Part shown: piece by piece, positions 45,770-61,775 of the stretch | How the letters are laid out: each line of letters begins with the position of its first letter | How positions within the stretch are numbered: the stretch's first letter is position 1 | Source: Pseudotabrizicola sp. | GTDB taxonomy: Bacteria; Pseudomonadota; Alphaproteobacteria; Rhodobacterales; Rhodobacteraceae | Direction: 5' to 3' | Length of the DNA: 64,000 nucleotides | Assembly (NCBI RefSeq): GCF_030684215.1 | Contig: NZ_JAUXOV010000029.1 | Coordinates: 1 to 64,000 of the forward strand | Made by a program: the position numbers and the translations under genes | Notes under the pieces: generated by a model | Databases searched by the model: none | What the model was told of the DNA's origin: nothing | The model's input: only the letters and a program-made list of their open reading frames with translations

Positions 45770-47722
45770 TCAGGCTCCCGAAGGTTCCACAAACATCCGG
45801 CCGCGCATCTCCATGTGAAGGGCGTGGCAGAACCACTGGCAGTAGTACCAGTAGACCCCGGCCTGAGCCGCGGTGAAGGTGATAGATGCCGTTGCCAGCG
45901 GCCCGACTTCCATCGCCACACCATGATTGCCAAGCGTGAAGCCGTGGGTCAGGTCGTCAATGTCATCCAGATTGGTGCAGATCACTGTGACTTCGTCGCC
46001 TTCCTTCACAGTGAAGGTTTCGAGGGAAAACGCAGGTGCCTGGCTGGTCATGTAGACACGGACCTTCTTCGGATCGTCTTTGTCGCGGATCACCGCATCG
46101 GTCCAGTCGTCCAGGTCCACGCCATCGGCCTCAGCCTGGGTACGGGTTTCGGCCCACATCACATCATCACGCTTCCACGCGGAAAGCGGGTTCACCCGGG
46201 AAGCAACCACGGCAATCGCATCATGCGGTTCGGCGAAGGCAGGTCCGTCGTGAACGATGACCATCTTGTCGCCTGAAATGTCGATCAGCTGATCGTTTTC
46301 GGGCTTCAGCGGGCCGACGTTCAGGAAGCGATCCTTGCTGAACTTGCTCAGGCAGACCAGCCAGTTGTTCTCGGCTTCCAGCGTTTCGCCCATCACCGTC
46401 TTCAGGTGGCCGGGCTGGTAGTGCACATCAAGTTTGTCCTTGATCGGGTCGATCGCTTCACCCGCATAGGCCTTGATCGCGTCCTCAATGCTCCACTTGA
46501 CCACCTGACTGTCGAGGAAGAGCGAGGTATAGGCAAAGCCGCGCCCGTCAAAAGCGGTGTGCAAGGGGCCGAGGCCCAGTTCGGGTTCGGCCACCACGGT
46601 GCTGCGCGGATCAATGTCGCTGGTGAACAGCGCATCGAACCGGGTCACATCCAGCACGGTGACGGTGGGCGACAGCTTGCCGGCGATGCAAAGGTGCTTC
46701 TTGTCAGGCGCCATATTGCAGCCGTGTGGGTTGTTGGCGATGGGAATATAGCGGGTGAATTGGCTTTTCGCCTCTTTGCGTCCGTCCAGCACGCGGACGC
46801 CATTCAGTTCCTGCCCCTCACCTGCGGCGACGGCCCTTTCGATCTCGGCGATGTTGAAGACGACGACATGGTCCATTTCGGCGGCGGTCATGTCGGACAG
46901 CGTCATGCCCATTTCGCTGTTGTAAGATGTCGAGAAGGCCCATTTGCCTTCATAGTCGGCATCGCAGTTGTCGAGGTTGCCGCTGACGATCACCTGCCAG
47001 GCCGGGGTCCAGCTGGCGCTGTCGACGGCGGTGAAAATGTTCACATAGGTCGAGACATCCTGCATCGTGGAGCCGTCGTTGACCAGCGGGGCCTCATCCT
47101 CGCCGTTGCAGAAGACATAGGTGGATTTCGGGAATTTCTGCGGGCGCAGGCCGTGGATGGCCTTTGCGTTCGGGACTTCCAGGATGGCGTCGCATTTCAT
47201 CACGTCGGTGCGAACGCGGGCGACGCGGGTGTTGGCTTTGTCGTTCATGAACAGATACTGGCCGTCATACTTGCCGTCTGCGAACGACATGTGGACGTGG
47301 TGAAGATCGCCCTGATCGTGGATCTTCTTGCCGTTGGCTTCGAGGTATTTCTTCGTCTTGTCGGTCATCGTCCGTTGGTGGATGCGGATCGATTCATTGG
47401 TAGACCCCCAGCCGGTGGCCGAGCAGCGGTTGAAAACCGGCACGCGCATCAGTTCACGCATGGACGGGATGCCAAGGATACGCATCTCGCCCGACTGACC
47501 CGAGGACCAGAAGCCGTAATGCGTGTCCAACTGGCCGGGGGCCACGCTGTATCCTTCGCCAGCCGCCAGCGCGGCACCGGATGAGGCAAGCGTCGCCCCG
47601 CCGAAAAGCCCGCCAGTCAGGGCAAGGCGACCTCCGCCCAGGGTGCCAGCAATTGCGGCCCCTCCGGCGGTGGCACCCAGCATTGCGCGGCGGGAAAGAC
47701 CAGTCTTGTGTTCCTGTGTCAT
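45770..47722 (-). CDS. nosZ: Nitrous-oxide reductase NosZ (clade I)
   Basis: 650 residues. A Tat signal ([13 protein letters not shown]) marks clade I and export of the folded enzyme. CuZ histidine ligands include those in [21 protein letters not shown] and FAEPHDA. The C-terminal cupredoxin carries the CuA ligands Cys628, Trp630, Cys632, His636 and Met639 ([12 protein letters not shown]). It reduces N2O to N2 in the periplasm. All key metal ligands appear intact. AAAGGAGTT precedes the ATG. Confidence 0.96.
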
Positions 47723-47736
47723 TCTCGGAACTCCTT

Positions 47737-49914
47737 TTATTCAGCAGGTTGCGTGTTGGGGTGGTTCGGGTGCCCGGAAACGTCGCGGGAAGCGGCGACC
47801 GTTTCTCTCCGCTTCATCTTCTTGATCACGACCGGGCAGATGGTTTTCGACTGATACAGGACCTGGCAATGCAGGCAGTTCACACACTCGTTCGGGTTGA
47901 TCTCACCAGTGGGGTGAATCGCCTGTACGGGGCACTGGTTGGCGCAGCTCTGGCATGGGTTGCCGCATTCCTTGTAACGCTTCAGCCAGTCGAACATCCG
48001 CATCCGCGCCGGGATCGCCAATGCAGCCCCGAGCGGGCAAAGGTAGCGGCAATAGAACCGCTCGACGAACAGACCAGCGGCAAGCAGCGCCAGCGCATAG
48101 GCCACGAACGGCCAAGTGCGGACAAATTTCAGGACAATCGCGGTCTTGAACGGTTCGACCTCGGCGAAGCGTTCGGCCTGTTCGATGCTCATCAGACTGA
48201 CGCCGAAGAGGCCGAGGAAGATCATGTATTTGATCGGCCAAAGGCGCTCATGAAGGCCCCAGGGAAGCGTCCATTGCGGCACGCGCAGCCCCCGGGCGAT
48301 GCGGTTGGTGATTTCCTGCAGCGCGCCAAACGGGCAGAGCCAACCGCAATAGGCCCCACGCCCCCAGAAAAGGAGTGCGACGGCAATCGAGAACCAAAGG
48401 ATGAAGGTCAGCGGGTCCAGAAGGAAAGCCTGCCAACTGAAGCCGCTGACCAGCGCGCCGAACAAGGCCATCAGGTTGACGACCGAAAGCTGCGCATTGG
48501 CATACCAACCAAGGAAAAACAGAGTGAAGGTCAGGAACCCCATGCGGAACCAGAAGAAGGCGCGGGCGTTCCGGGTGGCGATGCTTTGGAAAAAGAAAAC
48601 CAGCGTCAGGACCGCAAGCATCGCCACCGTGATCGCGATTTCAACCTGCTTGTCTGCCCAGATGCGCTTCCAAAGGGCCTGATGGGCAGCGGATTCAGCT
48701 TGATCGGTGACGTCGGCCACAGCTCCGGCGGCCTCCGACACCGGGGGCGCGGCGACAGCGCGAAGGTATCCCTGCGGCAGTTGGTAGCCCAGATCGAAGG
48801 TGGTGAAGACTTTTTCGATGGGTCCGACTTCGCGGTGTACCAAAAGCTGCAGGCGGAAGGGTTTCGTCGGGTCAAAGCCGACATCGGCCGGGATCTTGAA
48901 CAGATCTGTCTCGGTGAATTCGGGCGTGCCGTCGGCAACAACCGAGCCCAGCCGCTTGTGCATCTTGTCGCGAAAGCGAACCGAGACATCGTCCTGGATC
49001 AGGACAATGCGGTCGAAAATGCCGCCACGGACATAGCCCGAGCCTTTGTAGCTGTAGATCCCCCTGCCAACGACGACGAGAGCGTGCTCTCCCGGTTGCA
49101 GCCAGGTGGTCAGGTTCGCTGCCTCGCCGTCGCCCAGTATCGCCCTGCCAATGGAGGCATGTGACACAAGAGCGGTCTGCATCTCGATGAAAGTGGTCCC
49201 AGGCGGCTCGGTCAGAGCGCGGGCGATGGCACGTTCATCACCCAGCGCCGCAAAAGCGGCATTGACCTGCCCCACATCCAGCGAAAGGCGACGCAGCGTG
49301 CCGTCGCCCTCCAGCGTCGTCCAGTCGGCTGCCGCGTTTGCATCGGGGTTCAACTCGAACGTGGGGCCGACGGGCGCGGCATTGGGGGTCAACCCGCCAA
49401 GCCCAAGCGCCCGCGCCACTTTCAGTCCGGCTCTTACGATGGAGTCGTCTATGACCATCACCGTGACAGTCGCGCCCGAGATGATGTCCAACTCATGCGC
49501 CGTGCCGCCGGATTTCGCTTCCGCCACAAGATCAAGGCCGACATAACCGGCAACCACGGCCGCCATCTTCGCTTCGGGAATCCCGATCAGCACGATAGGT
49601 TCTGAATGCTTGACGAGCTTCAATCCCGCCACACGCGCATCCTTGTCAACAGCAACCAGCGTATGGATCGGTTTGCCAGAATAGCCGGTTGTGGAAACGA
49701 AGTCCGATGTGACAAATGCCCAAGCGATGGTTTCACCGGCCTTGGTCACAGGGGCGACGGGCGCATCCGGCAGCACCGCACCATATGCATCGGCTCCGGG
49801 CACAAGATCACCCGCGGGCACTTCGGAAAGAAAGTGTGGCAGGATGGTCTCGGCCGCTGCCGAAGATGTCGAAAGCAGGACACCAAGTAAAACAACCCGA
49901 GCGAGCGCCAGCAT
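47737..49914 (-). CDS. nosR: NosR membrane flavo-iron-sulfur protein
   Basis: 725 residues from the ATG at 49914, which yields a clean signal peptide ([21 protein letters not shown]). The periplasmic FMN-binding domain has the flavinylation motif [12 protein letters not shown]. Five or six membrane helices follow, with CGWLCPFG and [11 protein letters not shown] motifs. A C-terminal polyferredoxin ends it: [19 protein letters not shown] and [12 protein letters not shown]. NosR feeds electrons to, or maintains, NosZ. In-frame ATGs at 49950 and 49986 would hide the signal sequence. Confidence 0.92.
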
Positions 49915-50296
49915 CGGGTGCGCTGTGTCGCCGTCGCTATGGCGCAGCATCGAGGGGTAGCGGAAGCATCGACTCAAGCTAATCATGTTCAGGCGTATCC
50001 ATTTGAACGACCGGACTGCCCGCTGTGCTGTTTCGTCCTGTGGCTGGGTACAGGACGAGCCAAAACCGGGAGAAGCACGCTCAACACCGTCAGTGGATAC
50101 GCTGTTTCTCCACGCGCAACGTTGTTGTGGAACAAACTTCGGCGCGATCAAATGCGCGCGCTGGCTGCGGCATATGATTGATTAAAAACGAAAAGGCCGA
50201 CAGCGGTGGCGACACGTTCTAACAGTGACGACCAAAACGATTGCGCACGGCAAGGCTATGCCCCATGGCGCATTGGGGGGCTTGTACCCTATTGGC
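49915..50296. other. nosR upstream region
   Basis: About 380 bases between nosR and the small membrane-protein gene of the next unit; both are read on the minus strand. No gene is supported. No TTGAT-N4-ATCAA site is found, although nos promoters in relatives usually carry one. A hairpin-like GCCCC/GGGGC pair (about 50258-50282) just after the upstream gene could be its terminator. Confidence 0.4.
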
Positions 50297-50494
50297 TCAT
50301 GACGGGCCCTCCTTGTCGTGGTAAGGTCTGGTAGCCCTGCGCAGGGCTAGGCCGAGGGCGAGAAACAGCGCCGCGCCAAAGCCCCAGACCCAGGCATAGC
50401 CGATCATGCCGCTCCAGGGCGCAAGCGCGTATGCCAGCGCCAGCACCGCCCAAACAGTGGCCACGGTGAAGATGAGGGTGATGTCGAATTTCAT
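50297..50494 (-). CDS. Small membrane protein of the heme-copper enzyme unit
   Basis: 65 residues with two hydrophobic helices (ITLIFTVATVWAVLALAYALA and GYAWVWGFGAALFLALGLALR) and a charged tail. AAAGGAGAC precedes the ATG at 50494, and the gene starts 16 bases after the subunit I stop, so it belongs to that operon. It has the size and layout of the small accessory subunits of heme-copper oxidases (CcoQ- or CtaF-like). No function can be read from the sequence. Confidence 0.7.
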   Translation of the reverse strand: MKFDITLIFTVATVWAVLALAYALAPWSGMIGYAWVWGFGAALFLALGLALRRATRPYHDKEGPS

Positions 50495-50510: not shown

Positions 50511-52154
50511 TTAGTGGCCATGCCCGGCGCCCACCGCCTCGACCGGCAGCGCGCGCATCGTCTCGAATCCAAGCGTTGTGGCCCCATACATTCCGATCAC
50601 GATGATCAGAACGCCGAGAGGGCCGACCAAAGCGGCCGCGCCCGGACGTGGCGGGGTCGTTCCATCCCATCGCGACGAACAGGTTGGTGCCGCCCTGCTG
50701 CCGATCAACGATCCAGCGACCGAAAGGGCAAAGACCGTCAAGGCCAGCGCCATGACCAGCCCACCCGCCGCAACCCACCCCATCAGCGATGACCAGAGCG
50801 GGGGTGCCTCGCCGCCGTAGCCCGCGTCGATCACCCGGCGCGGCACACCCAGATAACCCGCCGCGACACCGGCGCCACCAAAGGCCAGCAACCCCAGCGT
50901 CGTCAGATGCGGCGTGAACCGCGCCAACCCCGGCATTGCCAGGCCGCGCCCGGTCAGCGCGGGCAGGATCAGGGCAAGTGCCGCGAGGAAGCTCAACGAG
51001 ACCGTGCCAACGGTGAAAAAGTGGAAATACCCCGGCACGAAGAAGGTGTCCGACAGAAGCGGTGCGAGGTCTGCCTGGATCAGCGCGAAGGCGAGCACGA
51101 TGCCGAAACCCATGTTGAGCACCGCGAAGCCCGCCGCCGCCATCGCTGGCTCACGCCAGGGCAGCATCCGGATCCAGCCGAACAGCCCCCGCCCGCCACG
51201 GGCGCGTGCATGCACCTCAAGCGAGGCGATGATGATCAGGAAGGCGGTGAGGGTCGGAACGCTGACAAAAAGCGACAGCAGCGATCCCGCGATCCGCACT
51301 GCGCCCGGCAGATCCGGCTCCAGAAACATGTGATAAAGCGAGGTCGGCGGTACGAAGACGAGATAGGCGGCGAAGACGAGCTTCGAGAAGCGCGCCCCAA
51401 AGATCGACTTCACGCCGACCACCTCCTGCATCAGCACATACCAGACGATGACCGTAGCCATCAGCGGCAGATAATGCATGTTGTGAAAAACGATGTGCCA
51501 ATTGGTGCCGTGATTTGCGGGGATCTCACCCAGACCCAGTGCCCACAAGACGCCCGGCGCGAAAACGTAGATCATGGCGAATCCGCTGACCATCAGGAAC
51601 CCCGCCCAAGTGAAGAGCGCAAAGCCCACCGCCGAGAATTCGCCCACGCGCCGGACGGCCGCGAGGAGCGTGGCCACCCCCGCCGCGGGAATCGCGATCA
51701 GCCCGAGGCCCAGAAGGATGTAGCCCGCGTTGAAAGCCGCCAGCCGACCGGGTTCATGTGCGGCCAGCTGGGGATTACCGTCATAAAGCAGCGGCGTGCC
51801 GCCGGTGGCCGCGCCAAGCGAGAGCGCCATGCCGGCAAGGATCAGCCCGAATCCGGCCCAGCCGAGCGCGCGCCCTGCCAGTCCGCGCCCGCCTTCGCCT
51901 GCGGCCAGTGCCAGCAGGATCGCGCCCTGCACCAGAAAGAGCCAATAGAAGAAGATGCCGACACCGTGCAGGGTCAGAAGTCGGTAGCCCGCTTCCGGCA
52001 GCAGGTCGATCCAGCCCGCCCGCGCCAGCGCCACGCCGACGCCCCCGGAGATGCCGCCCAGGAACACCAGCAGTGCCACGCCAGACATCGCCTGCAACAG
52101 CCAGCGGTCAACGGGTGAAAGGGTGGCCAGTCGGTCACGAAGAGGCCCGCTCAT
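50511..52154 (-). CDS. Heme-copper oxidase superfamily subunit I, non-canonical (candidate NO reductase)
   Basis: 547 residues, about 13 membrane helices, alignable by eye with B-family (ba3-type) subunit I: TLHGVGIFFYW, VPTLTAFLIIIASLE, ARGGRGLFGWIRMLPW, FFVPGYFHFF and GYLGVPRR. The low-spin heme ligands His63 and His378 are kept. The proximal ligand of the high-spin heme, His in ba3, is Tyr376, and one of the paired CuB histidines is Tyr274 (LYHMF, His275 kept). Helix VI reads WHIVFHNMHYLP (His220, His224, His227). It is not a cNOR or qNOR. Clustering with nos, nsrR and nnrS suggests NO reduction. Confidence 0.75.
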   Translation of the reverse strand: MSGPLRDRLATLSPVDRWLLQAMSGVALLVFLGGISGGVGVALARAGWIDLLPEAGYRLLTLHGVGIFFYWLFLVQGAILLALAAGEGGRGLAGRALGWAGFGLILAGMALSLGAATGGTPLLYDGNPQLAAHEPGRLAAFNAGYILLGLGLIAIPAAGVATLLAAVRRVGEFSAVGFALFTWAGFLMVSGFAMIYVFAPGVLWALGLGEIPANHGTNWHIVFHNMHYLPLMATVIVWYVLMQEVVGVKSIFGARFSKLVFAAYLVFVPPTSLYHMFLEPDLPGAVRIAGSLLSLFVSVPTLTAFLIIIASLEVHARARGGRGLFGWIRMLPWREPAMAAAGFAVLNMGFGIVLAFALIQADLAPLLSDTFFVPGYFHFFTVGTVSLSFLAALALILPALTGRGLAMPGLARFTPHLTTLGLLAFGGAGVAAGYLGVPRRVIDAGYGGEAPPLWSSLMGWVAAGGLVMALALTVFALSVAGSLIGSRAAPTCSSRWDGTTPPRPGAAALVGPLGVLIIVIGMYGATTLGFETMRALPVEAVGAGHGH

Positions 52155-52876
52155 GTCGCACCGCCTTCCGTCACGCTGAGGCGCGCCTGCATGGCGTCAT
52201 GCGCCGCGCCGCAATAGACGGTACAATAAATCAGGTAGTCACCCGCCCGCCTGAAACGCATTTCGGTTTCCACCAGTAGGCCCGGCCGCAGGCGGATCAT
52301 CCGCCCGCCACGCCCGAACTGGATTGAGGCCCCGTGCGCCACATCAGTCGCCATCATCCGAAAGCGGTAGGGTTGGTTCACTTCCAAACGCAGATGCCAG
52401 GGCTCGAAGTTGAACTGCGCCGCCTGGAGCCAGATGTCGATCGGTGCGGCATTGTCATTGGCATGCGGGTCGAGGCCGGATTGGGTACCATGATCCGCTG
52501 GCCCATGGTCGCCGTGATCGACCTGCGCCACTGGCGCATGCCTGGCATGCGGATCATGTTGCGCCTGATCGGCCATGGCGTCATGCCCAGCTTCCTCAGC
52601 AAGGGGACGCACGCTGCCGTCGGCCTCGCCGAAGCGCTGAATGAACGCCTGTAGCCGTGCCTCGAAAGCTTCGGGCGTCAGCGCATCAGGTCCCTGATCC
52701 GCATGGGTGCCTTGACCGGCGGCGCCGACTGCATCCTCAGTATGCGTGACACCGAAGAGCGCCAGCGGGCCAGGGGCCGCGCCGTAACCGACCCATAAGC
52801 CGTAAAGTGCGGTACCGCCGAACCCCGCTGCGGCCAGAAAGCCTCGGCGGGTCGTGAAGTGATGTTGATTGGACAT
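52151..52876 (-). CDS. CuA-bearing cupredoxin subunit II with His-rich linker
   Basis: 241 residues. An N-terminal membrane anchor or Tat-like signal (TTRRGFLAAAGFGGTALYGLW) is followed by a linker with eight histidines between residues 98 and 138. A cupredoxin domain follows with a complete CuA set: His181, Cys218, Cys222, His226 and Met229 (CTVYCGAAHDAM). It should pass electrons from a c-type cytochrome or cupredoxin to subunit I. ATGA overlap couples it to subunit I. A hairpin covers its ribosome-binding site. Confidence 0.8.
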   Translation of the reverse strand: MSNQHHFTTRRGFLAAAGFGGTALYGLWVGYGAAPGPLALFGVTHTEDAVGAAGQGTHADQGPDALTPEAFEARLQAFIQRFGEADGSVRPLAEEAGHDAMADQAQHDPHARHAPVAQVDHGDHGPADHGTQSGLDPHANDNAAPIDIWLQAAQFNFEPWHLRLEVNQPYRFRMMATDVAHGASIQFGRGGRMIRLRPGLLVETEMRFRRAGDYLIYCTVYCGAAHDAMQARLSVTEGGAT

Positions 52877-52884
52877 AGGTGGAT

Positions 52885-52902
52885 ACCTTCAAATCTGAAG
52901 GT
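52885..52902 (-). promoter_or_regulatory. Hairpin or dyad covering the subunit II ribosome-binding site
   Basis: Perfect 7-base arms ACCTTCA and TGAAGGT around a 4-base loop end 8 bases before the ATG. The Shine-Dalgarno GAAGG is in the 3' arm. It could be a translational switch or a DNA operator. Confidence 0.65.
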
Positions 52903-53119: not shown

Positions 53120-53506
53120 TCAAGTGAATTTGGGAGGTCGTCCGGCAGGGCCAGATCTGAGACCTGCAGGAAGGGGTGTCAGTCGCAGACCGGGACGCGC
53201 TGCGCCTGACAGCGGCGGGGCGGAAATGTCTGAGTTTCCGACCGCACACACGACGCAGTGCCCGTGAACCGAACAGGTGTCGGCGCTATGTTCTGTCCCA
53301 TTGCCGCAATTTCCGGCGCGCTCCGCGATATTGTGCAACTCGCTCATGGCACCGTGGACATACTGATGCTGAACTGGACGGGCCTCTGCGTTTGAGGTTC
53401 CCGCAAACCCGATGGCGGCTATGACCAGTGCAGCAGTTAGCCAAGACAGAACGCGCCAGCGCCTGCTCTCCGTTACCGCTCTACCGTCGTCTCGATTCGC
53501 GTCCAT
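53120..53506 (-). CDS. Small secreted Cys/His protein of the NO-handling cluster
   Basis: 128 residues from the ATG at 53506, preceded by GGGAG. A hydrophobic signal (VLSWLTAALVIAAIGFAG) precedes a small mature part with CGNGTEHSADTCSVHGHC and VVCAVG, then a Pro/Gly-rich tail. The layout is like DUF2946-type periplasmic proteins that often accompany copper genes, but no family can be claimed. It is the first gene after a perfect FNR/Dnr box and is transcribed toward the heme-copper enzyme, so it may help load or protect that enzyme's metal sites. Confidence 0.6.
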   Translation of the reverse strand: MDANRDDGRAVTESRRWRVLSWLTAALVIAAIGFAGTSNAEARPVQHQYVHGAMSELHNIAERAGNCGNGTEHSADTCSVHGHCVVCAVGNSDISAPPLSGAARPGLRLTPLPAGLRSGPAGRPPKFT

Positions 53507-53555: not shown

Positions 53556-53569
53556 TTGATGCAGATCAA
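53556..53569 (-). promoter_or_regulatory. Perfect FNR/Dnr-type box
   Basis: TTGATGCAGATCAA is a perfect TTGAT-N4-ATCAA dyad. It lies 50 bases before the start of the secreted-protein gene, and TACTTAT (about 53531-53537) is a plausible -10, placing the box near -41.5 as in class II activation by FNR/Dnr/NnrR proteins. Confidence 0.8.
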
Positions 53570-53749: not shown

Positions 53750-54023
53750 TCAGACAACTGTTTGCTCCCGCGTCTTGACAGGGAATCTCACCGATTTCAG
53801 CACGGTTCCTTCCGCATCGACGATAAACCGGCACGCGCGATTCAAGTGATAGAAGGTCAGACGCCAGCACCCGGCGTCTTCGTCCACGCCCAGTTCACAA
53901 CGCGACGTGATAAAAGCCGTCGTGCATGTGCACCCTGATTTCTTCTTCAGACAGCTTGAAGGCTTGGGCCACCAATCGTGCGTCGATGACAATATCCCCG
54001 GTGACGCGCTCGACAGATGTCAT
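53750..54023 (-). pseudogene. DUF6522 family protein, single-base frameshift
   Basis: From the ATG at 54023 (GGAAGGAAA upstream) the frame reads MTSVERVTGDIVIDARLVAQ, AFKLSEEEIRVHMHDGF and stops soon after. The second half, TSRCELGVDEDAGCWRLTFY and FIVDAEGTVLKSVRFPVK, continues in the +1 frame to 53750. The two halves join as one DUF6522-like protein of about 90 residues if one T is removed from the TTTT run after GGC. This may be a real mutation or a homopolymer sequencing error. The family is of unknown function and travels with NO-response genes. Confidence 0.65.
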
Positions 54024-61761: not shown

Positions 61762-61775
61762 TTGATAAAAGTCAA
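61762..61775 (-). promoter_or_regulatory. FNR/Dnr-type box upstream of the Dnr-like gene
   Basis: TTGATAAAAGTCAA has one mismatch to TTGAT-N4-ATCAA. It lies about 54 bases before the regulator's ATG, and GATAAT (61746-61751, minus strand) is a candidate -10. The close spacing would suit autoregulation. Confidence 0.6.

What the first reader, a model, noticed from the sequence alone, without database searches (positions are those of the whole stretch)
50511..52154. Heme-copper-type subunit I with Tyr in place of two active-site His
By-eye alignment with ba3-type subunit I is unbroken across helices II, VI, VII and X (TLHGV, RGGRGLFGWIR, VPGxFH). The low-spin heme ligands His63 and His378 are kept. 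But the high-spin heme proximal ligand is Tyr376 (PGYFH instead of PGHFH), and the CuB His pair is Tyr274-His275 (LYHMF instead of FHHQF). Helix VI offers three His (WHIVFHNMHY). This is neither the oxidase set (three His plus Tyr) nor the cNOR/qNOR set (three His plus Glu). A Tyr-ligated heme and remodelled second metal site would be a new reaction centre or one of the recently described alternative NOR families.
Basis: partly seen in the sequence, partly recalled or inferred. Interest (0 to 1): 0.88.

Follow-up and report, generated by a model that had tools for sequence, protein, structure and literature searches.

The report
Copper-linked oxidase relative with tyrosine-altered core
A membrane enzyme related to the oxygen-reducing oxidases has tyrosines where two catalytic histidines normally sit, and across many bacteria its genes stand beside copper-detoxification genes and low-oxygen/nitric-oxide switches, which suggests a so far uncharacterised enzyme for handling copper when oxygen is scarce.

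Summary
Subunit I (50511-52154, -) is a ba3-like heme-copper protein. Tyr376 replaces the proximal His (ba3 H384) and Tyr274-His275 replaces the His282-His283 pair. The low-spin ligands His63/His378, helix-VI His224 and Tyr228 (ba3 Y237) are kept; His227 is new. In 81 sequences (window plus 80 loci) each of these residues is invariant (H63 has one gap). Three further members, found without motif patterns, agree. The trait defines a clade of its own, beside, not inside, Gln-type NOR-like enzymes.

New here: a three-gene unit (Tat-type CuA subunit II, subunit I, 2-TM protein). An exact FNR/DNR-type box precedes it in 36 of 80 loci (1.4 expected). A CutF-like copper-sensing leader precedes it in the window and 37 of 80 loci. 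Copper-resistance genes flank it in 17 of 24 checked genomes, against 0 of 35 norB/nosZ loci of the same genomes. Of those 24 hosts 18 already carry cNOR.

Best reading: a copper-responsive membrane oxidoreductase for low oxygen, probably taking electrons from Cu(I) or a cupredoxin through CuA, perhaps passing them to NO. Chemistry is unproven. Identity with the published 'nNOR' family could not be tested because the paper is not held.

The parts
53556..53569 (-). exact FNR/DNR-type box TTGATCTGCATCAA (read on -)
   Evidence: exact boxes within 1 kb upstream of subunit II in 36 of 80 related loci vs 20 in 1,120,676 bp elsewhere in the same loci
53120..53506 (-). 128-aa CutF/CruR-like copper-sensing leader: hydrophobic export signal, CVVC, C-terminal RPPKFT
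   Evidence: sequence; features compared with PMC9973294 and PMC9426467; no Pfam DUF2946 hit for this copy
52885..52902 (-). short hairpin ACCTTCA-GATT-TGAAGGT over the presumed ribosome-binding site of subunit II (weak evidence)
   Evidence: sequence; fold (window z -2.0; similar hairpins in L002-L006, but their z-scores are near zero)
52151..52876 (-). subunit II: Tat-type N terminus, His-rich linker, cupredoxin domain with full CuA ligand set H181 C218 C222 H226 M229
   Evidence: the five ligands in 81 of 81 sequences, Tat-like motif in 69 of 81
50511..52154 (-). subunit I: B-type heme-copper protein with Tyr376 at the proximal position and Tyr274-His275 at the CuB pair
50297..50494 (-). 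65-aa protein with two apparent membrane helices (read from the sequence), conserved third gene of the unit
   Evidence: 79 of 80 loci; the fetched sequence of L024 ends first; W15, Y22, W37, G40, F44 in 80 of 80 rows
47737..49950 (-). nosR (my reading) downstream, same strand (approximate start, about 350 bp gap); adjacency seen in the window only
   Evidence: no nosR or nosZ hit in the fetched flanks of the 80 other loci
45770..47722 (-). nosZ (my reading; Tat-type nitrous-oxide reductase), downstream
   Evidence: used as query

Best explanation
It is a three-subunit cytoplasmic-membrane oxidoreductase, a clade of its own in the B-type part of the heme-copper superfamily, whose job is tied to copper stress under low-oxygen or denitrifying conditions. 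Shown by sequence: a complete CuA site in a Tat-type subunit II; low-spin heme ligands kept; binuclear centre altered to Tyr376 (proximal) and H224/H227/H275 with Y274 and Y228 (distal); a broken K-type proton path; FNR/DNR-type boxes; CutF-like leaders; copper-resistance neighbours. Inferred: electrons enter at CuA from periplasmic Cu(I), or from a cupredoxin or cytochrome, pass the low-spin heme, and end at a tyrosinate-ligated high-spin heme with a three-His metal site. There they reduce NO (or traces of O2) with protons from the periplasmic side. This would make it the low-oxygen counterpart of the Tat-exported multicopper oxidase CutO/CueO: it would turn toxic Cu(I) into Cu(II) where those O2-dependent enzymes fail, and in the window it has come to lie beside the nos genes. 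The copper/low-oxygen role is the firmer half; Cu(I) as donor and NO as acceptor are the weaker half.
For: Residue set fixed in the members examined. Separate clade, 100/100 support. CuA ligands 81 of 81, Tat-like 69 of 81. Copper genes near 40 of 80 loci, and 17 of 24 loci in the checked genomes vs 0 of 18 norB and 0 of 17 nosZ loci of the same genomes. Representatives pass NCBIfam cut-offs as copper P-type ATPase, CusA/CzcA-type RND pump, heavy-metal sensor kinase and response regulator. CutF-like leader in 38 of 81 (window included), 0 of 81 on the opposite strand, 28 of 1146 control 1-kb strands. Exact FNR/DNR box in 36 of 80. Cop-type palindrome in 6 of 80 with up to 2 mismatches (shuffles 0.6), exact in L009, L011, L012; Cue-type box with 0-2 mismatches in 7 loci, exact in L048. 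cutFOG precedent, where CutF controls a Tat-exported multicopper oxidase that oxidises Cu(I) (PMC9973294, passages and sections 11-12), and a review passage that CueO would be inactive under anaerobic conditions (PMC3817396, passages). Of 24 hosts 18 have NO-forming nir, 18 cNOR, 18 nosZ; cNOR background in the window's family 48 of 149.
Against: No biochemical data. The copper query set was chosen from clusters found around the family, so the test is partly circular; three pairs of the 35 control stretches overlap. 40 of 80 loci show no copper gene above threshold (some lie near contig ends), and a gammaproteobacterial branch (L069, L071, L072, L075, L077, L078, L080) shows neither copper gene nor leader. 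The window copy lies next to nosR, not copper genes. The multicopper-oxidase, CusB and TolC-type representatives fall under their NCBIfam cut-offs and the DUF411 one has no hit. Leaders do not match Pfam DUF2946 over its cut-off (0 of 10 tested; best L029, E 0.0069). Cue-type boxes at up to 3 mismatches: 8 of 80 against 3.05 in shuffles; CusR- and CsoR-type: no excess. The leader-to-gene gap is long in the window (243 nt) and the hairpin statistics are weak. The denitrification link is not corrected for phylogeny (many hosts are Azospirillum), and 6 of 24 hosts show no NO-forming nir. No known heme-copper enzyme oxidises Cu(I) (recalled).
Confidence: 0.45

Rival explanations
1. An NO reductase in its own right (possibly the published nNOR family), fed by cytochrome c or a cupredoxin through CuA; the copper genes nearby reflect its need for copper or co-selection in islands.
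For: Groups next to Gln-type NOR-like enzymes within the B-type branch; FNR/DNR boxes; 18 of 24 hosts have NO-forming nir; nNOR is described as B-family-related (PMC11388526, passages).
Against: The NOR families listed in PMC8756737 Table A4 have E, N, Q or D as active-site residue where oxygen reductases have Y; here Tyr228 is kept in all 81. Of 24 hosts 18 already have cNOR. A NOR role does not explain copper-sensing leaders and Cop/Cue-type boxes. The join with the Gln-type group involves a stem of 3.1 changes per column, flagged as possibly false.
Confidence: 0.27
2. An oxygen or peroxide reductase: a tyrosinate-ligated heme, as in catalase, working on O2 or H2O2 under copper-driven oxidative stress.
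For: Oxidase Tyr position and E313 kept; proximal Tyr resembles catalase (recalled); copper context.
Against: FNR/DNR boxes point to low oxygen or NO; K-path positions Y244, T312, T315 are mostly V, A/V, I/V; the CuB His pair is broken.
Confidence: 0.13
3. A copper-maturation or electron-wiring protein that lost the catalytic centre: it passes electrons or copper to cupro-enzymes such as NosZ and binds no high-spin heme.
For: Both classical high-spin/CuB sites are altered; invariant Met232 and Met276 close in sequence to the distal His; window copy next to nosR-nosZ.
Against: H224, H275, Y228, E313 and the Arg pair R439-R440 stay invariant or nearly so, which a dead centre would not need; no nosR or nosZ hit beside the 80 other loci.
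Confidence: 0.12

Closest known systems
ba3-type (B-family) cytochrome c oxidase, Thermus thermophilus
   Same: Fold, low-spin ligands, H233 and Y237 positions, conserved GLFGW-LPW loop; CuA subunit II (for ba3 recalled)
   Different: 22-24% identity in the fold matches; Tyr for H384 and H282; K-path residues lost; Tat-type subunit II; different third subunit; copper/FNR-type regulation
Gln-type B-family NOR-like enzymes (eNOR signature by Table A4 of PMC8756737)
   Same: Nearest other group in the tree; B-type
   Different: They keep the His pair and the proximal His (HSSQQIN, HH, HFH); they have Gln where this family has Tyr228
cutFOG operon (CutF leader, multicopper oxidase CutO), Rhodobacter capsulatus
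   Same: Copper-sensing exported leader with C-terminal proline motif followed by a Tat-exported copper protein (PMC9973294)
   Different: Downstream enzyme is a heme-copper-type membrane complex, with FNR/DNR-type boxes
nNOR (Murali et al. 2024)
   Same: Reported as B-family-related putative NOR (passage in PMC11388526)
   Different: Cannot be compared: paper and sequences not held

Membership tests
Heme-copper oxidoreductase superfamily, subunit I | COX1 homology and fold | tested here: met
   Pfam COX1 3.2e-31; Foldseek ba3 E 2.5e-15
Heme-copper oxidoreductase superfamily, subunit I | two His ligands of the low-spin heme | tested here: met
   H63 (80 of 81, one gap in a cut sequence) and H378 (81 of 81)
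Heme-copper oxidoreductase superfamily, subunit I | proximal His of the high-spin heme | tested here: not met
   Tyr376 in 81 of 81 and in 3 further members
B-family oxygen reductase (ba3) | three His of CuB plus Tyr on helix VI | tested here: not met
   H224, Y228, H275 kept; one of the His pair is Tyr274
B-family oxygen reductase (ba3) | K-path analogue (residues recalled) | tested here: not met
   Y244, T312, T315 positions are V/A, A/V/L, I/V/L; Y248 position Y in 81 of 82 rows, S309 position T in 82 of 82
cNOR / qNOR | Glu in the active site, NorB-like sequence, heme c or quinol module | tested here: not met
   Tyr228 at the position; cNOR NorB of the same genome branches far away (no qNOR row in the tree); partner has CuA
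eNOR | Gln at the active-site Tyr position | tested here: not met
   Tyr in 81 of 81; Gln-type sequences form another clade
sNOR / gNOR / CuANor (bNOR) | Asn or Asp as active-site residue (Table A4, PMC8756737) | tested here: not met
   Tyr in 81 of 81; no labelled reference sequences of these families in the tree, so placement against them is untested
nNOR | features given by Murali et al. 2024 | not testable with these tools
   paper not held; the passages seen in the three held papers that name it give no residues
CutF/CruR (DUF2946) leader | export signal, Cys motif, C-terminal proline motif, placed before the unit | tested here: met
   38 of 81 by a strict rule; 43 of 81 do not pass it
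CutF/CruR (DUF2946) leader | Pfam DUF2946 profile | tested here: not met
   0 of 10 tested over the cut-off, one weak hit

The most novel reading that the evidence does not exclude
An anaerobic cuprous oxidase: a heme-copper-superfamily complex with a tyrosinate-ligated heme that removes electrons from toxic periplasmic Cu(I) through CuA and disposes of them on nitric oxide, switched on jointly by copper (a CutF-like leader) and by low oxygen/NO (FNR/DNR). It would be the oxygen-free counterpart of CueO/CutO and, as far as I recall, the first non-His proximal ligand in the superfamily.
Probability: 0.2. Interest if true: 0.92.

Novelty: new variant of a known kind. Interest (0 to 1): 0.74.

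Why it matters
A fixed Tyr in place of the proximal His and of one CuB His would change what the heme-copper scaffold is thought to require. The copper-plus-low-oxygen regulation offers a concrete, testable answer to how denitrifying bacteria handle Cu(I) when O2-dependent multicopper oxidases cannot work. It also warns that such genes can be mistaken for cytochrome c oxidases, or counted as NO reductases in N2O budgets.

Tried and rejected
Nos-linked NOR: rejected as a general rule, because no nosR or nosZ hit appears in the fetched flanks of the 80 related loci (flanks at most 8 kb, some cut by contig ends). The only NOR of its hosts: rejected for 18 of 24, which have cNOR, and for the window's genome, which has two cNOR copies. 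Degenerate single copy or sequencing error: rejected by invariance. Third gene as a known family: no Pfam or NCBIfam hit over cut-off. Hairpin over the ribosome-binding site as a family-wide feature: not supported by z-scores. CusR- and CsoR-type boxes: no excess. Literature on copper-linked or Tyr-ligated heme-copper enzymes: searches listed nothing that looked relevant by title or abstract start apart from a copper review (read in passages); the held library lacks most subscription journals, so this is no proof of absence from print. Side-chain geometry in the model could not be measured, as no coordinates were given, and the second aligner was not available. On rechecking, four of seven members found without patterns proved identical to loci already held; the count was cut to three new ones, and the odds did not need changing.

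Full report
What is there. The window holds, on the minus strand, an FNR/DNR-type box (53569-53556), a 128-aa exported leader (53506-53120), a CuA subunit II (52876-52151), subunit I (52154-50511), a 65-aa protein with two apparent membrane helices (50494-50297), then nosR, nosZ, nosD and nosF. Further upstream lie a NsrR-like regulator, a globin, a Ric/YtfE-like protein, ubiU/ubiV-like genes and nnrS. The nos and upstream gene names are my reading of the translations, not family searches. The genome (4.4 Mb, 81 contigs) has six COX1-type genes: an aa3-like, two cbb3-like, two cNOR-like and this one (types read from their motifs).

The observation. Subunit I aligns with Thermus ba3 along the helices that carry the ligands (23% identity in the best fold match). 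With ba3 numbering (residue roles recalled; numbering offset applied): H72 = H63, H233 = H224, Y237 = Y228, H282-H283 = Y274-H275, H384 = Y376, H386 = H378. R449-R450 are kept (R439-R440, 80 of 82 rows), E321 is kept (E313). H376 and N377 of ba3 are S368 and D369. His227, Met232 and Met276 are invariant but not found in ba3. The 82 rows hold the window twice, so there are 81 sequences; in them H224, H227, Y228, Y274, H275, Y376 and H378 never vary, H63 has one gap and H220 is His in 72. Three of six search patterns cover these motifs. Searches without patterns hit 7 genomes besides the window's; 4 of the proteins were already held and 3 are new, and all keep the residues their frames cover. 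The other heme-copper proteins aligned, 36 non-family sequences including a ba3 reference, and 5 plasmid-borne ones, keep the His pair and the proximal His.

Kinship and spread. In a 70-sequence tree the family (24 rows) is one clade with 100/100 support, separate from 11 Tyr-type oxidases and 30 Gln-type NOR-like proteins; it joins the Gln type with 99/93 but on a stem of 3.1 changes per column, which the program flags as a possible false join. The family is rare and patchy: 3 of 149 genomes of the window's family, own included; 1 of 398 of the phylum, the window's own; 6 of 385 of the class, own included; 1 of 369 of a class centred on a second host, that host itself. In some searches at most three candidates per genome were scored, so these may be low. 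The 80 loci of the named scan are labelled as Pseudomonadota or groups within it (80 of 101 confirmed relatives were kept by the tool).

The unit. Subunit II is found in 80 of 80 loci and the third gene in 79 of 80, in the same order. The CuA ligands are complete in 81 of 81 and a Tat-like motif is found in 69 of 81.

Copper. Clustering the neighbours showed CopA-type P-type ATPases, CusA/B/C, CusR/S, multicopper oxidases and DUF411. In NCBIfam the ATPase, CusA/CzcA, sensor and regulator representatives pass their cut-offs; the two multicopper-oxidase, the CusB-like and the TolC-like ones are recognised below cut-off, and DUF411 (my recalled label) has no hit. With fixed score limits 40 of 80 loci have at least one of CopA, CusA, CusB, multicopper oxidase or DUF411. 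In the 24 host genomes I checked, 17 of 24 family loci do, against 0 of 18 norB and 0 of 17 nosZ loci of the same genomes (Fisher p 1e-9). Caveats: the queries came from the family's own neighbourhoods, and three pairs of control stretches overlap. Six loci carry an ATTACANNNNTGTAAT-like palindrome with up to 2 mismatches (0.6 in shuffles), exact in L009, L011 and L012; seven Azospirillum-type loci have a Cue-type box with 0-2 mismatches, though at 3 mismatches the total is 8 against 3.05 in shuffles (regulator names recalled).

The leader. 38 of 81 sequences (window included) have, sense to subunit II, a 104-140 aa ORF with an export signal, at least two Cys and a PP motif within 12 residues of its end; 0 of 81 on the other strand; 28 of 1146 control strands. 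This matches the described features of CutF (PMC9973294: Sec signal, CxxxC, C-terminal proline motif, controlling a Tat-exported multicopper oxidase; passages and sections 11-12 read) and CruR (PMC9426467: CXXC and RAPP; passages and section 10 read). Ten tested leaders gave no Pfam DUF2946 match over the cut-off. Seven other loci have a DUF411 gene there instead (L008, L013, L015, L020, L025, L033, L062).

Low oxygen and NO. Exact TTGAYNNNNRTCAA boxes occur within 1 kb upstream of subunit II in 36 of 80 loci (76 have the full 1 kb); the rate elsewhere in the same loci (20 in 1,120,676 bp) predicts 1.4. In the window the box lies about 50 bp before the leader start. Of 24 hosts, 11 have NirK over the cut-off, 7 others a strong cd1-type match (380 bits or more; NirN and NirF share this domain), 18 cNOR and 18 NosZ matches, one of them weak. 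Six show no NO-forming nir (hosts of L002, L005, L011, L032, L050, L051). cNOR background in the window's family is 48 of 149. This association is not corrected for phylogeny.

Mechanism. CuA to low-spin heme to an altered centre is the natural electron path. Y228 is kept, yet the K-path positions Y244, T312 and T315 have become hydrophobic, so proton pumping by the ba3 route is unlikely. Three His (H224, H227, H275) could still hold a distal metal, with Y376 as heme ligand; this is inference. The copper leader plus FNR/DNR box argue for need when copper is high and oxygen low, where a review passage states that CueO would be inactive (PMC3817396, passages; the same review notes a CueO role under anaerobiosis in Salmonella, so the gap is not absolute).

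What is known. The newer NORs (eNOR, sNOR, gNOR, nNOR) are described in Murali et al. 2024, which is not held; I know it only through citing passages (PMC11388526, PMC12569097, PMC10359470) and recall, and Table A4 of PMC8756737 lists older signatures without nNOR. I cannot say whether this family is their nNOR. The listings showed no held paper that evidently describes a heme-copper protein with this residue set or this copper link.

Verdict. The NOR reading is possible but not the best supported. A copper-responsive, low-oxygen oxidoreductase fits more of the evidence.

Noticed in passing
window 53750-54022 (-): A small ORF next to the NsrR-like gene seems to be split over two frames (an ATG-started piece of about 42 codons, then a second piece ending at 53750); it may be a broken small gene.
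   Followed up: no
G000 C57:80242-81585 and C73:12908-14251 (L085, L086): The window's genome carries two cNOR NorB genes that are 97% identical, one about 28 kb from subunit I.
   Followed up: partly
L069:9916-10314, L077:3068-3475: In a gammaproteobacterial branch the third subunit looks like a tandem double of the two-helix unit.
   Followed up: no
L047 and L049 (same assembly): One host, Roseomonas genomospecies 6, has two copies of the whole unit on different contigs.
   Followed up: no
L163 (Halarchaeum plasmid): A haloarchaeal ba3-like oxidase gene set lies beside a halocyanin-domain gene and a heavy-metal P-type ATPase: copper linkage of B-type oxidases may be wider.
   Followed up: no
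P0001 residue 547: The extreme C-terminal His is kept in 80 of 81 sequences, the exception being a cut one, odd for a tail that the model leaves unordered (pLDDT 34); it may be a metal ligand.
   Followed up: partly
window 61762-61775: A second exact FNR/DNR-type box lies further on in the denitrification region.
   Followed up: no
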